Assembly (NCBI GenBank): GCA_021650895.1
Contig: CP091278.1
Span: 1,207,659 to 1,271,658 of the forward strand
DNA length: 64,000 bases
Origin: Candidatus Jettenia sp.
GTDB lineage: Bacteria; Planctomycetota; Brocadiia; Brocadiales; Brocadiaceae
Direction: 5' to 3'
The notes under the pieces are model-generated. The model made no database searches and had not been told where the DNA came from. It worked only from the letters and a program-made list of their open reading frames with translations. Below, piece after piece: positions 57,055-63,719 of the stretch (position 1 is the first letter of the stretch; every line of letters begins with the position of its first letter). The position numbers and the translations under genes were made by a program.

Positions 57055-57192
57055 TACTATATTTTATTTGACATAAAATGCTATACTTGAATATAATTAA
57101 CGAACTATTTATATAATTTGTTATTCCAAGCAAACAAGTTGCACTTAAAGTTTTGCGAGAAGATGTGGAATAAGATATACATAGTCAAAATA

Positions 57193-57316
57193 CAAAGCGA
57201 TAAAGGCAAACCCTGAGTGATCAGGGGACGCAAAGTAAAGGATCTTTAATAATACTGATAGAGACGCATAATGATGCGCCTCTGCTATGAATTAAAGATA
57301 GCCCTACTACCGAAGA
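57193..57316 (+). promoter_or_regulatory. Cyclic di-GMP-I (GEMM) riboswitch
   Basis: AAAGGCAAACC, a CTGA-GTGA-TCAG stem with a GNRA tetraloop, and GGGACGCAAAG together are the conserved core of the GEMM-I aptamer. A second arm, ATCTTTAAT paired with ATTAAAGAT, matches P3, and ACTACCGAAG fits the 3' end. The P3 loop contains an extra hairpin, TAGAGACGCA-N6-TGCGCCTCT, identical in arms to the dispersed repeat at 10745. A strong hairpin follows 22 bases later. The tetraloop receptor in P3 is not obvious. Confidence 0.78.
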
Positions 57317-57338
57317 AAAATGTTTAATAAACTCAAAC

Positions 57339-57402
57339 AAATACAAAAACCTTACTCCGGAAGTATTTGACCAAATATTTCCGGAGTAAGGTTTTTGTAT
57401 TT
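57339..57402 (+). terminator. Perfect 24 bp hairpin, likely riboswitch-linked terminator
   Basis: AAATACAAAAACCTTACTCC continuing GGAA is followed by a 16-base loop and its exact complement, ending in TTTTTGTATTTT. It lies 22 bases after the GEMM aptamer and could be its expression platform. The same symmetry would end transcription from both sides. Confidence 0.65.
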
Positions 57403-57476
57403 TAAGAGTGCGTGTAGGAACAACATCAAAACAAATCTTAGTTGACTGATTCTTTGAATCTTATAGAAAAGCGAAG

Positions 57477-57595
57477 ATGTCTCTTATCGATTTAGATATT
57501 GCTTATTCTTCTTTGACTTGCTATGCCACCTGATCCCTATTTTTTATCATTCCCAATCAATAGAGAAGGTTATAAGTTTATACAAGCACTAGTCC
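57477..57595 (+). pseudogene. Deleted relic of an ABC-2 exporter permease (second wzm copy)
   Basis: The ATG and the next 12 codons (MSLIDLDIAYSS) match the start of the intact permease at 58836 (MSPTDLDLAYSS). After an internal loss it continues with TGACTTGCTATGCCACCT (matching about 58935-58953) and then CTATTTTTTATCATTCCCAA (matching about 59455-59480). Roughly 550 bases are missing in two deletions. It follows the riboswitch hairpin by 75 bases. Confidence 0.75.
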
Positions 57596-57730
57596 GACTC
57601 CACGGTACACCATCAGTTATATTACAATACCTTTAGTAAATTGTTTTTTAGCAAAAAACTATCAGCTATAAGATAATTAGGCAAGAAAATTGCTTCCTTT
57701 TATACTTCATACTCAAATTTGAAAAATTGA

Positions 57731-58675
57731 ATGGAATATAATAAGATGCCACAAGTTAGCGTAATTATTCCTACGTATAATCGTGCTAAGCTTCTCCACT
57801 CAGCAATTACCAGTGTATTAAATCAGACATTTCAGGATTTTGAGATAGTTGTAATAGATGATGGTTCGCAAGATAATACGCAGGAAATTGTAAAGAATTT
57901 TCATGATGAGAGAATACGGTATATATGCCATAAGGAAAATAAAGGAGAAGCCGGTACCAGAAACACGGGAATAATAAATTCACATGCTGAATATATAGCA
58001 TTCTTAGACGACGATGACGAATGGTTACCGGAAAAACTCCAGCTACAAGTTGATTTATTAAAAGATAGCAAATCCAAAGTTGGATGTATATATACGGGTT
58101 ATTTAGTAGTAGATACAACGAAGGGAAAAATATTACGTCGAAGGATTCCCATAAAGCGAGGAGACATTTATCGCGATCTTTTTGTAAGAAATTATATTGG
58201 AGTTCCATCTACTGTTATTCTCAGAAGAGAATGCTTTCACAAGGTAAATTTATTCGATGAGAACATAACCTTTGGAACCGATTATGATATGTGGATTCGG
58301 ATTGCAAAAGAATTTCATTTTGATTATATAGAAAAACCTCTCGTTAAGTATTACATTCATAAAAATAGACTTTCTGCTAATTTGGATATACAAATTAAAG
58401 GATTTGAAACAATTCTTAAAAAATATAATCAATTTTTCACCTTAAACAATAAAATTTACTGTCATCAGTATATATATCTTGGCTTACTGTATTGTTGCAC
58501 CGGAAATTTCAAAAAAGGAAGAGAAATATTTTTTAAAACAATACGATTACGTCCATTTGGAATAAGAAGTTATCTAGGCCTTGCACTCTCCCTTTTCAGT
58601 ACAGATAATTTCAGGAGAATAAGAAATTTAATAGAAAAATTTCTCTTGTATCGTAAAAATCAGAGCCCATTTTAA
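57731..58675 (+). CDS. Family 2 glycosyltransferase
   Basis: A 314-residue GT-A enzyme. VSVIIPTYNRAKLLHSAITS, VVIDDGSQDNTQEIV and ENKGEAGTRNTGI form the nucleotide-sugar site, with the metal motif AFLDDDDEWLPEKL; FGTDYDMWIRIAKEF is the acceptor-side motif. It transfers one sugar to the growing glycan or lipid carrier. The C-terminal 70 residues are basic and helical, with no transmembrane span. It is the first intact gene after the riboswitch (about 330 bases from the hairpin). Confidence 0.88.
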   Translation: MEYNKMPQVSVIIPTYNRAKLLHSAITSVLNQTFQDFEIVVIDDGSQDNTQEIVKNFHDERIRYICHKENKGEAGTRNTGIINSHAEYIAFLDDDDEWLPEKLQLQVDLLKDSKSKVGCIYTGYLVVDTTKGKILRRRIPIKRGDIYRDLFVRNYIGVPSTVILRRECFHKVNLFDENITFGTDYDMWIRIAKEFHFDYIEKPLVKYYIHKNRLSANLDIQIKGFETILKKYNQFFTLNNKIYCHQYIYLGLLYCCTGNFKKGREIFFKTIRLRPFGIRSYLGLALSLFSTDNFRRIRNLIEKFLLYRKNQSPF

Positions 58676-58835
58676 GACTAAAATATTGAGAACCTAAATT
58701 TTGTAATGGAACACAAATTTATAATTTACCATTTTCCCCCAACAATTTATAACAATAATTATCTTGATAACGAGATATATCTTTGATATACATTAAGTTA
58801 GAGTATTTCTTAGAATATCGTTTTTTTAAATAAAG

Positions 58836-59675
58836 ATGTCTCCAACCGATTTAGATCTTGCTTATTCTTCTGAAAAAAGTATTTCTACCTTACATAAGAA
58901 ATCATATCATAGGAGTTCATTGGTTCACCATGTGGACTTAATATGCCACCTCGTGCGTCGTGATTTTACTTTACGTTATAAACAATCGATACTTGGTGTC
59001 CTTTGGTCACTTGTGCTTCCCTTAGCTCAACTCATCGTATTAGTATTCCTTTTTGATATTGTTGTCCCTTTAAATATTGATGCCTACCCGGTTTTTGTCT
59101 TTGGTGCTTTACTGCCATGGACGTGGTTCAGCACATGTTTAGGTTCAGCAGGTAATCTCTTTATTCAAAACCGGGACTTAGTTCGGCGGCCTCATTTTGT
59201 CCCCGCTGTTCTTATTATTGTGAATACCCTATCAAACTTACTGAATTATGTAGTAGCCATGCCAATACTTTTTGGCATGTTAATCTTTTACGGCAAAACT
59301 TTGACATGGGCTTTATTAACCCTTCCCTTGCTTATCCTCATCCAGGGTATTTTGATTGTTAGTCTTGGTTTAATGATTGCAACCCTGAACGTCTTTTATC
59401 GTGATATACAGCATATGATGAGCATGATGCTTATGCTTCTGTTCTACCTGACCCCTGTTTTTTATCGTTCCCAATCGGCTGCTGAAAATTATCGTATCTT
59501 GTACACGTACAGCCCGCTTGCAATATTAATCCAGAACTATCGGGCAATCTTTCTCTACGGCACATTCCCCGAATGGAATTCATTGCTCATTGCCGGCATT
59601 ATAAGCGTTGTTCTCTGCAGCTTCAGTTACCTTGTGTATTGTCGTTACCTTCACGATGTTATCGATACCATTTAG
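58836..59675 (+). CDS. wzm: ABC-2 type polysaccharide export permease (Wzm-like)
   Basis: A 279-residue inner-membrane protein with six hydrophobic segments. DLICHLVRRDFTLRYKQSIL followed by GVLWSLVLPLAQLIVLVFLF is the usual start of Wzm/TagG-type permeases, and FYRDIQHMMSMMLMLLFYLT with TPVFYRS is the conserved end. It exports a lipid-linked O-antigen or capsule chain. Its stop at 59675 and the GTG of the partner ATPase at 59702 are 26 bases apart. Confidence 0.9.
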   Translation: MSPTDLDLAYSSEKSISTLHKKSYHRSSLVHHVDLICHLVRRDFTLRYKQSILGVLWSLVLPLAQLIVLVFLFDIVVPLNIDAYPVFVFGALLPWTWFSTCLGSAGNLFIQNRDLVRRPHFVPAVLIIVNTLSNLLNYVVAMPILFGMLIFYGKTLTWALLTLPLLILIQGILIVSLGLMIATLNVFYRDIQHMMSMMLMLLFYLTPVFYRSQSAAENYRILYTYSPLAILIQNYRAIFLYGTFPEWNSLLIAGIISVVLCSFSYLVYCRYLHDVIDTI

Positions 59676-59701
59676 TCAAGCGATTATTCGAGGAGTATAG
59701 G

Positions 59702-60880
59702 GTGTCTGCCGTTCTCACTGTAGAATCTATCTCAAAGCAATTTAAAATCCAGCGCAATCGTCCTGTTTCCCTCAAAGAATCTATAATCTGGTGGTTCCAT
59801 AACCGTTATAATACCAGCAATAACAGATTTTGGGCACTCCGCGATGTTAGTTTTTCAGTAGAGCAAGGTCAGGTATTGGGCATTATTGGTCATAACGGCG
59901 CAGGAAAAAGTACTCTGCTGCGTTTATTATGTGGCCTGGGAAGGCCTACCTGTGGACGTATCCAACGTACAGGACACGTAAGCGGCTTACTTGAATTGGG
60001 AAGCGGATTCCATCCTGACATGACCGGCCGTGAGAATCTCATGACGGGAGGAATCCTGAGCGGCCTGACCAGACGCGAGGTACAGGCAAGGCAGCAGGAG
60101 ATCGTAGCCTTTGCCGAATTGGAAGAATTCATCGATCAGCCAGTAAGAACCTACTCCAACGGTATGTATTTACGGCTTGCATTCGCAGCAGCTATCCATT
60201 TTGATCCCGATGTACTCATTATCGATGAAGTATTAGCAGTTGGAGACTCACGCTTTCAGAAAAGGTGTCTCGAACGGTTGAATGCCTTTCGTATATCAGG
60301 TAAAGCCTTAATCCTGACATCGCACGACTCTGAGCAGATCAAAAGCTTGTGTGATGAAGTCCTGGTATTAGAGGAAGGCCGTGTCGTGATGCAGGGCGAC
60401 CCGACAAGCGCCATAAGTTGTTATAACGATCTGATGCGCCAGAGGACAGAAAAACGGGCTGCACAGCTTTTCAATGGAGTAGTTCAGCCAAGTCTGATAG
60501 TTGAACGTGGCAACCGTATGGGGACACAGGAAGTATCGATCTGTGCTGTCCATTTGTATGATAAACAAGGAAATATGAATGATACCCTGCATAGCGGAGA
60601 TGGCTTGACAATCGAACTTAACTACAACCTTACTGCGTCTCTGTCCGACATGGCTCTTCTCCTGGGTATCTATAGCGAGACTAATGTTAAGTGTTTTGAG
60701 ACCTATATCCTATCGGTAAGCGCAACCTTTGGTCCCCTAACCAAACAAGGCAGTTTCAGTTGTCACTTCCGGGAATTACCCTTGCTCCCTGGATTATATT
60801 ATATTACCGTAGGTCTCTATCCCACTGATTGGAGCTATGTTTACGATTATCATTGGCAAATGCACCCTTACACGTTCTAA
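59702..60880 (+). CDS. wzt: Polysaccharide export ATPase with glycan-recognition domain (Wzt-like)
   Basis: A 392-residue ABC ATPase. I choose the GTG at 59702: GAGGAG lies about nine bases upstream, and the protein then begins with ABC sequence. Walker A is IIGHNGAGKSTLLRLLCG, the signature YSNGMYLRLAFAAAI, and Walker B VLIIDEVLAVGD. After about residue 250 comes a beta-sandwich C-terminal domain (SICAVHLYDKQGNMND, FSCHFRELPLLPGLYYITVG) as in Wzt proteins that read the non-reducing end of the glycan. It partners the permease just upstream. Confidence 0.92.
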   Translation: MSAVLTVESISKQFKIQRNRPVSLKESIIWWFHNRYNTSNNRFWALRDVSFSVEQGQVLGIIGHNGAGKSTLLRLLCGLGRPTCGRIQRTGHVSGLLELGSGFHPDMTGRENLMTGGILSGLTRREVQARQQEIVAFAELEEFIDQPVRTYSNGMYLRLAFAAAIHFDPDVLIIDEVLAVGDSRFQKRCLERLNAFRISGKALILTSHDSEQIKSLCDEVLVLEEGRVVMQGDPTSAISCYNDLMRQRTEKRAAQLFNGVVQPSLIVERGNRMGTQEVSICAVHLYDKQGNMNDTLHSGDGLTIELNYNLTASLSDMALLLGIYSETNVKCFETYILSVSATFGPLTKQGSFSCHFRELPLLPGLYYITVGLYPTDWSYVYDYHWQMHPYTF

Positions 60881-61153
60881 AAAACGGAATACACTCTGGG
60901 GTTTCCGGTATAATTTCTCTTTGTCCGGTCTGGTCTATTCCACCAGAGAATTCAGGATAAGCTGAGACGAAGATATGAACCTAATTAAGCACAGTCACAT
61001 ATCACATTTAAAACCAAGGGAAAATCATCGCCGTTGATTTTTCGCTCGATCGAGTCCGTTAAAGACCGTAAAAGCAAAAAGGGTTATTGTAAACTGGTTC
61101 TAAACTTGCTGTAAAACACTATACAATCGGGGAATCAAAAAGGAGCAATGTAT

Positions 61154-62398
61154 ATGGAATCAAAAAAGTATGTGATTCAAACTGACCGAATCAAAAGTCC
61201 TTTGATAAGTATCATTGTCACGAATTTCAACTATGCAAGATATATTGAGACTTGCCTGCAATCGATAGCTGATCAAACGTATACAAAATTTGAGTGCGTT
61301 ATTGTGGATGACGTCTCTCAAGATAATTCCGTAAAGATTATTGAACGCTTCATCGATAGCAACCAGGTATCGGACCGATTTCGTTTAGTACAGCACGGGG
61401 AGAACCAGGGTCAAATGGCGGCATTCCAGACGGGCCTTGAACACACAAGCGGCAGATTTGTGGTATTTGTTGATGCTGACGATCTTTTGCTGCCGGATTT
61501 CATTGAAACCCATCTCAAGGCACATTTGAATTCGTCCTACGAGGCAGCTTTAAGCAACTCGGATCAGTTCCAAATTGGGTCTGATGGACAGATTCTCAGC
61601 GCTACCCACATTGTCATGTACAAAAATCGTGGCAATACGAGATCGATCGCAAGGGAACCAAAGAATGGTCAGTGTGAGTGGAGCTTCTCGCAGGAAGGGC
61701 CAATGACCTTTCGACAACCGGATTTACCCATAGAATACTATCACGCATGGGAGATTCCGCAATGGGGCTGGATGTGGAGCACGACCAGCGCAGCGATGTT
61801 TCGGCGCGATGTTTTAAATATGATTATGTCTGAGGAATGTCGTTGTCTGAGGGTGTGTGCGGATAGCTATTTATTTCATTTCTCCCACGCGCTTGGTGGC
61901 ACCCTGATAATTCCTGCCGTCCATGGGTGCTATCGCCGCCACGGCAGTAACGCCTTCTCCAACAACCCCATTATTGGCGGCTTTAACAGTCCCGGTGACG
62001 TTCGGAGAGACCCTAAAGCCCTTTCCAGGGAGCTTAGTTTTCGACTTGCTATCAAACGCTTCGACTATTTTCATGCTGTAATCGGCAAAGATCGTATAAT
62101 TTGGCTCTTAAAGTATTTTGGTTCCGGCAGGAAATTTATAAAACTCACACTATCACCCAAAACCTTTCCCGAAAACATGTTCATACCAAGCGTGCGCATA
62201 ACCCCGGAAAACATATTTTACCAGAAGATTTTTAGGTCTCCGGTTGCGCCACAGAAAATAATTATCCGCATAATCGGGAGGTTCTATTTGAGGTTTGTTC
62301 GATACATGTATCAAGTAATTAGATTTTTTAAAAACCCTAGAGTAGACCGGATCAAGTTTTCTCTGGAATCTTGCTCCAAAGAGACCGATAGCGTGTGA
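61154..62398 (+). CDS. Family 2 glycosyltransferase, longer form
   Basis: A 414-residue GT-A enzyme. LISIIVTNFNYARYIETCLQ, CVIVDDVSQDNSVKII and GENQGQMAAFQTGLEHTSGR give the donor site, VVFVDADDLLLPDFIE the metal motif. The ATG at 61154 lies eight bases after AGGAG; the ATG at 61148 is too close. A ~130-residue C-terminal part is basic and aromatic. Another sugar transferase of the same cluster; specificity unknown. Confidence 0.87.
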   Translation: MESKKYVIQTDRIKSPLISIIVTNFNYARYIETCLQSIADQTYTKFECVIVDDVSQDNSVKIIERFIDSNQVSDRFRLVQHGENQGQMAAFQTGLEHTSGRFVVFVDADDLLLPDFIETHLKAHLNSSYEAALSNSDQFQIGSDGQILSATHIVMYKNRGNTRSIAREPKNGQCEWSFSQEGPMTFRQPDLPIEYYHAWEIPQWGWMWSTTSAAMFRRDVLNMIMSEECRCLRVCADSYLFHFSHALGGTLIIPAVHGCYRRHGSNAFSNNPIIGGFNSPGDVRRDPKALSRELSFRLAIKRFDYFHAVIGKDRIIWLLKYFGSGRKFIKLTLSPKTFPENMFIPSVRITPENIFYQKIFRSPVAPQKIIIRIIGRFYLRFVRYMYQVIRFFKNPRVDRIKFSLESCSKETDSV

Positions 62399-62459
62399 GC
62401 AGTAAAATTCATCAAACCAGCAAGCCGAATAATCATTTATTAAAGTGAGAATTATAGCA

Positions 62460-63719
62460 ATGAAAATGGAAACATCTCTTAAAGAATACTTGATAGACTT
62501 CTATCTTCACAAATCTGATGTTTTTTGCATCATGCCATGGGTACATATGCATAGCTGGCCTGATGGCAGAGTACTACCATGCTGTTATGCGAAATGCGAT
62601 CAACCCATCGGATATTTGAATAACGGTTTAAAAGTCGTTTGGAATAACGATGCTTACAAGGCCTTTCGGCAAAAAATGCTTAAAAATATTCCAATCCCAG
62701 AGTACTGCTATAAATGCTATGAATACGACAAGTCTGGAAACTTTTCTTATCGAAGATATGCAAATAAAAAATTCGGGAAACACTTCTATGAGGCTTTAGA
62801 CGAAACGGACGCAGACGGAACCTATAACAAGTTTACGCTTCGCTATTTGGATTTCCGGTTCTCAAACCTATGCAACCATCGCTGCAGATCATGCGGTCAT
62901 GGACTTTCAAGTAACTGGTATGACGAGCATGTGAAGATACATGGCGATCCCGGCCTTCCAAAGGTAATCAAATCAAACAATCAAGCGTATCTTAAAGAGG
63001 TATTGGAAATACTTCCGTCTGTAGAAGCTGTATATTTCGCAGGCGGTGAACCATTGATACAAGAGGAGCATTATCTCATACTCAGCAAGCTTAGGGAAAT
63101 AGGGAAAACCGATGTTGATCTTTCGTATAACACAAATTTATCTACTCTCGGTATAAAGAATTATGATGTTTTTGATTTATGGCGTGGATTCAAAAGTCTC
63201 AGAATTGGCGCTAGTTTAGATGGTTCCGGAAGTCGTGGTGAGCTGCTAAGAAAAGGACAAAGTTGGGAAGTTATTGTGAGGAACAGGAAAAAATTAATGG
63301 AGAACCCGCCAGAGGTAGGATATTTTGAATTTGGAGTTTCAGCTACAGTTGGAGCCATGAATGTTCTTCACATTCCGGATTTCCACCGTGAATGGATTGA
63401 TGCGGGTCTTATTCCTCCAAATGCTTTCCTGATCAACCCTATTATGGATCCAAATTTTTTACGGGTGAATATATTACCGAGGGAATATAAAGATCAAGTA
63501 GAGAAAAAATATAAAAAATTTATGAGAGAATGTCTATCGGGATATGCGGAAACATACCAAGAATACGAAGCCTTTCTTAGGTTAATGTGGGAACATGATT
63601 TACAGGAGTATCTGCCTACTTATTTCTGGTGGATAAAAACACTGGACGAAAGTCGCGGTGAAAACTTTGTGCAAGTTTTCCCGGAATGGAAAGAGCTTTT
63701 TCTAAAGTACGCTCAATGA
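62460..63719 (+). CDS. Radical SAM protein with N-terminal twitch/SPASM domain
   Basis: About 420 residues. The first ~95 residues are a twitch/SPASM-like Fe-S domain (MPWVHMHSWPDGRVLPCCYA, then YCYKCYEYDKSGNFSYRRYA). The radical SAM core follows, with the cluster motif FSNLCNHRCRSCGHG (CxxxCxxC) and the SAM-binding YFAGGEPLIQEEHYL. This order, auxiliary domain before the core, is the reverse of the common peptide-modifying SPASM enzymes. It uses a 5'-deoxyadenosyl radical on an unknown substrate; in a glycan cluster a sugar or lipid substrate is conceivable. The ATG at 62460 is chosen; a GTG at 62445 is possible. Confidence 0.87.
   Translation: MKMETSLKEYLIDFYLHKSDVFCIMPWVHMHSWPDGRVLPCCYAKCDQPIGYLNNGLKVVWNNDAYKAFRQKMLKNIPIPEYCYKCYEYDKSGNFSYRRYANKKFGKHFYEALDETDADGTYNKFTLRYLDFRFSNLCNHRCRSCGHGLSSNWYDEHVKIHGDPGLPKVIKSNNQAYLKEVLEILPSVEAVYFAGGEPLIQEEHYLILSKLREIGKTDVDLSYNTNLSTLGIKNYDVFDLWRGFKSLRIGASLDGSGSRGELLRKGQSWEVIVRNRKKLMENPPEVGYFEFGVSATVGAMNVLHIPDFHREWIDAGLIPPNAFLINPIMDPNFLRVNILPREYKDQVEKKYKKFMRECLSGYAETYQEYEAFLRLMWEHDLQEYLPTYFWWIKTLDESRGENFVQVFPEWKELFLKYAQ

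What the first reader, a model, noticed from the sequence alone, without database searches (positions are those of the whole stretch)
57193..57595. c-di-GMP riboswitch stranded in front of a gutted exporter gene
A GEMM-I aptamer and a 24 bp perfect hairpin precede not a working gene but a relic of an ABC-2 permease. The intact permease lies 1.3 kb further on and has no such switch before it. Either the switch once controlled a first copy of the exporter and lost its target, or it now acts on the glycosyltransferase at 57731. In both cases it ties surface glycan export to c-di-GMP.
Basis: partly seen in the sequence, partly recalled or inferred. Interest (0 to 1): 0.78.

Follow-up and report, generated by a model that had tools for sequence, protein, structure and literature searches.

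The report
Riboswitch driving an anammox glycan exporter
An RNA sensor for the signal molecule c-di-GMP sits in front of a glycosyltransferase and glycan-export operon of an anammox (Jettenia-group) bacterium; it is not stranded, because in two sister species it adjoins that operon directly, and the broken gene behind it is the scar of an older exporter operon.

Summary
A c-di-GMP-I aptamer (RF01051, 59.8 bits, E 3.5e-9) lies at 57195-57314, with a consensus-perfect promoter upstream, a 30-bp terminator hairpin downstream, and a gutted permease behind it. 'Stranded' does not hold. In the two other Jettenia-genus genomes the 278-bp relic block (57449-57726) is absent, and the same switch and terminator abut the glycosyltransferase that leads into the intact permease and ATPase. 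In two Brocadia genomes a c-di-GMP-I switch directly precedes the homologous permease. The live target is most likely the glycosyltransferase-permease-ATPase operon. The relic also carries about 150 nt of the start of a large glycosyltransferase gene that has no match in the three Jettenia-group genomes, so it is the collapsed remains of an older exporter operon. This genome has 24 such aptamers. In class A platforms the aptamer's 3' strand is the terminator arm (predicted ON with c-di-GMP). In class B, used here, a separate terminator coexists with the folded aptamer (predicted OFF, moderate confidence). Brocadia uses class A on the same exporter, so the sign may be inverted between genera. 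A new member of a known riboswitch class with a readable history; ligand binding and sign are untested.

The parts
57068..57097 (+). promoter TTGACA-18-TATAAT, 12 of 12 consensus letters
   Evidence: conserved in G001 and G002
57195..57314 (+). c-di-GMP-I aptamer
   Evidence: RF01051, 59.8 bits
57234..57241 (+). beta: 5' strand of aptamer helix P3 (AGUAAAGG)
   Evidence: model alignment; read from the sequence
57302..57308 (+). alpha: 3' strand of P3 (CCCUACU)
   Evidence: model alignment
57339..57402 (+). terminator hairpin; its 5' arm holds alpha' (CCUUACU, 57350-57356), U tract from 57392
   Evidence: covariation
57449..57726 (+). scar of an older exporter operon, absent in G001 and G002
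57450..57512 (+). scar piece 1: upstream region and start of a permease gene
57521..57558 (+). scar piece 2: later part of the permease gene
57564..57711 (+). scar piece 3: start of a large glycosyltransferase gene that follows permease and ATPase in relative G005
57731..58675 (+). family 2 glycosyltransferase, first intact gene of the operon (likely start 57746)
   Evidence: PF00535, E 1.8e-38; abuts the switch in G001 and G002
58836..59675 (+). ABC-2 permease, Wzm-like
   Evidence: PF01061
59702..60880 (+). ATPase with Wzt C-terminal domain
   Evidence: PF00005, PF14524
55999..57054 (+). polysaccharide deacetylase upstream, not thought to be under the switch
   Evidence: PF01522

Best explanation
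A functional c-di-GMP-I riboswitch with its own promoter and intrinsic terminator controls transcription into the operon glycosyltransferase (57731) - permease (58836) - Wzt-type ATPase (59702). The piece between terminator and glycosyltransferase is the scar of an earlier exporter operon (permease, lost ATPase, large glycosyltransferase) that the switch once fed. Shown by computation: the aptamer, the hairpin, the conserved order switch-glycosyltransferase-permease, the make-up of the scar. Inferred: that c-di-GMP binds, that transcription reads through to the ATPase gene, and the sign. The terminator is separate from the aptamer and compatible with its folded form, and its 5' arm (alpha') mimics the P3 3' strand (alpha) and could pair with beta when the aptamer is not held together; I therefore predict that c-di-GMP favours termination. 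Sign: about 0.55 OFF, 0.2 ON, 0.25 little or no switching. The confidence below is for target and origin, not for the sign.
For: RF01051 hit; promoter and terminator conserved in two sister genomes; hairpin covariation; in both sisters the switch abuts the glycosyltransferase; switch directly before the homologous permease in two Brocadia genomes with different upstream genes; scar pieces above all of 1000 shuffles, in the gene order of G005, with no intact source for piece 3 in the Jettenia-group genomes; 24 aptamers and 11 GGDEF matches in this genome; class B terminator compatible with the folded aptamer.
Against: No binding or transcript data. In equilibrium folds the class B terminator forms in the full leader whatever P3 does, so switching is not shown. 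In this strain 280 nt of mostly untranslated scar lies between terminator and glycosyltransferase and could reduce read-through. The homologous exporter of Brocadia AMX1 (L086) has no such switch, so the link is not universal.
Confidence: 0.8

Rival explanations
1. The switch is stranded: its only target was the gutted permease, and in this strain it now only makes a terminated leader RNA.
For: The scar lies directly behind it and holds permease pieces.
Against: In two sister genomes without the scar, aptamer, terminator and promoter are conserved directly before the glycosyltransferase. In this strain aptamer, promoter and hairpin are intact, and the hairpin has changed by matching changes on both arms.
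Confidence: 0.1
2. The hairpin is a constitutive terminator and the class B leader does not switch; the aptamer makes a c-di-GMP-binding small RNA or serves some other purpose.
For: At equilibrium the terminator forms in every class B leader alongside P3; 30 pairs are hard to keep open.
Against: A separate terminator with a conserved base that copies alpha recurs in 18 sorted leaders from several genera, before pilus, exporter and other genes. In nine of the Jettenia leaders beta pairs better with alpha' than with alpha.
Confidence: 0.2
3. The scar is a recent local insertion made by copying bits of the present operon, not the remains of an older one.
For: Both sister genomes lack it; the permease pieces are nearer to this strain's own permease than to those of the sisters.
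Against: Piece 3 comes from a glycosyltransferase gene with no match at E 1e-20 in G000, G001 or G002, so the present operon cannot be its source. The permease pieces differ by 10-16% from the intact own gene, more than the 3-7% between this strain and G002 over the same gene.
Confidence: 0.1

Closest known systems
c-di-GMP-I (GEMM-I) riboswitch, RF01051; transcriptional OFF switches of Clostridioides difficile class I (PMC11477304)
   Same: Aptamer class; terminator downstream of the aptamer; predicted termination with ligand
   Different: Sign here is only predicted; the terminator's 5' arm copies the aptamer's P3 3' strand; the target is a glycan exporter of an anammox bacterium
Bc2 RNA, c-di-GMP-I ON switch of Bacillus thuringiensis (PMC4933901)
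   Same: Aptamer class; intrinsic terminator as platform; resembles the class A leaders of this genome and of the Brocadia exporter
   Different: The window's leader is class B, with a terminator that does not use the aptamer's own strand
c-di-GMP-I-GGC model, RF03167
   Same: Best model for the Brocadia switches before the same permease
   Different: The window's aptamer is listed under RF01051
Wzm/Wzt-type glycan ABC exporters
   Same: ABC-2 permease plus ATPase with Wzt_C, among glycosyltransferases and a deacetylase
   Different: Below the NCBIfam cut-offs for the named galactan and teichoic acid exporters; the glycan is unknown

Membership tests
c-di-GMP-I riboswitch (RF01051) | sequence and structure score over the curated cut-off | tested here: met
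   59.8 bits against 35, full length
c-di-GMP-I riboswitch (RF01051) | ligand-contact letters G20, A47, C92 (Vc2 numbering) as in c-di-GMP binders, not the G20A form of c-AMP-GMP binders | tested here: met
   read from the model alignment; the mapping of Vc2 positions is from own knowledge
c-di-GMP-I riboswitch (RF01051) | GNRA tetraloop on the first stem | tested here: met
   GUGA loop in CCCUGAGUGAUCAGGG
c-di-GMP-I riboswitch (RF01051) | binds c-di-GMP | not testable with these tools
   needs in-line probing
c-di-GMP-I riboswitch (RF01051) | expression platform before a co-oriented gene | tested here: met
   terminator hairpin and operon; order conserved in two sister genomes
transcriptional OFF riboswitch | terminator compatible with the ligand-bound fold, antiterminator formed without ligand | tested here: inconclusive
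   compatibility met; the beta-alpha' antiterminator is possible but does not win in most partial-transcript folds
Wzm/Wzt glycan ABC exporter | ABC-2 permease followed by ATPase with Wzt C-terminal domain | tested here: met
   PF01061, PF00005 and PF14524 over their cut-offs

The most novel reading that the evidence does not exclude
Sister anammox genera control the same glycan exporter with c-di-GMP riboswitches of opposite sign (class A, ON, in Brocadia; class B, OFF, in Jettenia), class B being a platform in which the terminator's 5' arm copies the aptamer's P3 3' strand so that beta chooses between alpha and alpha'.
Probability: 0.4. Interest if true: 0.55.

Novelty: new member of a known kind. 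Interest (0 to 1): 0.4.

Why it matters
Anammox bacteria live as granules and biofilms, where c-di-GMP has been correlated with extracellular polymers (PMC11224092), but my searches of the held library found no account of c-di-GMP riboswitches in them (the library lacks most subscription journals). This locus gives a concrete, testable link from c-di-GMP to a glycan exporter. The 24 aptamers of this genome, with several platform types, are a natural set for studying how one aptamer is wired to opposite outputs, and the scar records a change of the genes behind a retained switch.

Tried and rejected
Hairpin as an unrelated mobile palindrome: rejected, since hairpins of this kind, with a conserved base and a variable apex, lie 25-41 nt behind class B aptamers in several genera and covary. 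Relic as a chance match: rejected by shuffles. Relic as a copy of the present operon: rejected because piece 3 has no source in the Jettenia-group genomes. Dating the scar by the species tree: inconclusive; this strain is about equally near to G001 and G002 in much of the flanking DNA and nearer to G002 downstream of the switch. A second structured element in the 90-nt leader before the aptamer (57102-57192): not supported, z -1.2. One hairpin alignment with wrong end points was discarded and redone. Literature on anammox c-di-GMP riboswitches: none found.

Full report
What is there. The only Rfam match in the window is a c-di-GMP-I aptamer at 57195-57314 on the + strand, 59.8 bits, E 3.5e-9, over the full model. 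The letters at the known ligand contacts are those of c-di-GMP binders (AAAGGCAAAC, GACGCAAAG, CUACCGAA; the mapping to the Vc2 structure is from own knowledge). Ahead of it lies a TTGACA-18-TATAAT promoter at 57068-57097, conserved in both sister genomes. Behind it lies a hairpin of 30 pairs at 57339-57402 with a U tract. On an alignment of seven homologous hairpins five pairs show changes on both sides; the number of such cells (8) was not reached in any of 500 shuffles. So the hairpin is kept as a hairpin, and by position and U tract it is an intrinsic terminator.

The organism. The window lies in a 3.82 Mb single-contig genome. It is thus an anammox bacterium of the Jettenia group. It has 24 matches to RF01051, 23 over the cut-off, 11 GGDEF matches and one PilZ.

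The relic. The block 57449-57726 is absent in G001 and G002, where riboswitch, terminator and the roughly 45 nt behind it run straight into the glycosyltransferase start. Short repeats, TTGACTG and TTGAATG, lie at its ends. Its content, in order: upstream region and start of the permease gene (57450-57512), a later part of the same gene (57521-57558), and the start of a large glycosyltransferase gene (57564-57711). The last matches relative G005, where that gene follows permease and ATPase directly. Scores exceed each of 1000 shuffles: 33 against at most 23 for the permease part, 38 against at most 19 for the glycosyltransferase part. That glycosyltransferase has no match at E 1e-20 in the three Jettenia-group genomes, so the scar cannot be copied from the present operon. 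It reads as an older permease-ATPase-glycosyltransferase operon collapsed by deletions. Whether the sisters lost the scar or never had it is not settled by the tree; its content points to loss. Its permease start resembles the present Jettenia permease (90%), so it was probably a second copy.

The target. The order in the window is deacetylase (55999), switch, scar, glycosyltransferase (57731; likely start 57746), permease (58836), ATPase with Wzt_C (59702), glycosyltransferase (61148), radical SAM protein (62445). No + strand terminator-like site was found between the riboswitch hairpin and 59000. In Brocadia genomes G020 (L090) and BIN37 (L085), whose upstream genes differ, a c-di-GMP-I switch (best model RF03167) lies directly before the homologous permease. 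With 56 aptamers in the 4.0 Mb genome G020, a co-oriented aptamer within 300 nt upstream of a given gene is expected about 0.002 times (own estimate), so two such cases are unlikely to be chance. The Brocadia AMX1 locus (L086) has no such switch.

The platform and the sign. Of 48 aptamers from this and related genomes that a script could sort, 30 are class A: the P3 3' strand (AGCCUUACUGCCGAAGAU) is itself the 5' arm of the terminator, so folded aptamer and terminator exclude each other, which predicts ON with c-di-GMP. Eighteen are class B, the window's included: a separate terminator 25-41 nt downstream, whose 5' arm repeats the P3 3' strand (alpha') and which is compatible with the folded aptamer; this predicts OFF, or no switching. 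The sorting rule was the presence of the alpha' motif, so that presence is not independent evidence; but apart from the rule, all sorted class B aptamers end in ACUACCGA and all class A in ACUGCC. The G002 orthologue (L087) was not sorted by the script; it reads ACCACCGA and has the class B layout. In nine Jettenia class B leaders, the window's included, beta fits alpha' better than alpha (-4.7 to -5.5 against -3.5 kcal/mol), which suggests beta-alpha' as antiterminator. But the equilibrium fold of the full leader keeps a terminator in every case, and beta-alpha' dominates the partial transcript in only three of 18. I therefore hold OFF at about 0.55. A third platform, judged by eye in L001-L004 and L006, has a CAGCAC-type segment behind the aptamer that can pair with the ribosome-binding region (GGAGGUGCUG) of the next gene. 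Both signs are known for c-di-GMP-I: OFF in C. difficile (PMC11477304), ON in B. thuringiensis (PMC4933901). Genes behind class B leaders in this genome include a prepilin-like protein, a Flp pilin with a prepilin peptidase, PilM and this exporter; behind class A, a matrixin-like protease and NHL-repeat exported proteins among others.

Verdict. The sequence observation is right and richer than described. It is a new member of a known riboswitch class, with a well-supported target and an untested sign.

Noticed in passing
window 60840-60880: The ATPase gene has a 1-nt deletion near its 3' end relative to both sister genomes, which shortens the open frame (435 against 470 codons); the Wzt_C domain is still matched almost to its end.
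   Followed up: partly
L007:1717-2967: A class A c-di-GMP-I switch precedes a tandem run of small cysteine-rich peptides (72-87 aa, e.g. ...WGCGSSCKEGCKKACKDWCKN...); the one scanned has no Pfam match.
   Followed up: no
L024 (G000:C1:1124283-1124358, minus strand): A c-di-GMP-I aptamer below the cut-off (33.5 bits) seems to carry a long palindromic, MITE-like insert in its P3 region (...GTGTCATTGCGAGGG...CCCTCGCAATGACAC...).
   Followed up: no
L016-L023 and L008, L011-L013: Aptamers of this genome carry one of two shared accessory modules in the P3 loop (a GUGGACAGUGUU...-type insert or a GAGACGCAU...AUGCGUCUC hairpin), as if copies had spread by duplication or gene conversion.
   Followed up: no
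G000:C1:3092636-3093066 (L001, L004): Two c-di-GMP-I aptamers lie in tandem about 340 nt apart before a secreted beta-helix-like protein; the same pair occurs in G001 and G002.
   Followed up: no
window 57727-62476 against G001 and G002: Downstream of the switch this genome is often clearly nearer to G002 (93-98%) than to G001 (84-95%), while upstream it is about equally near to both, as if DNA had been exchanged with an edge at the switch.
   Followed up: partly
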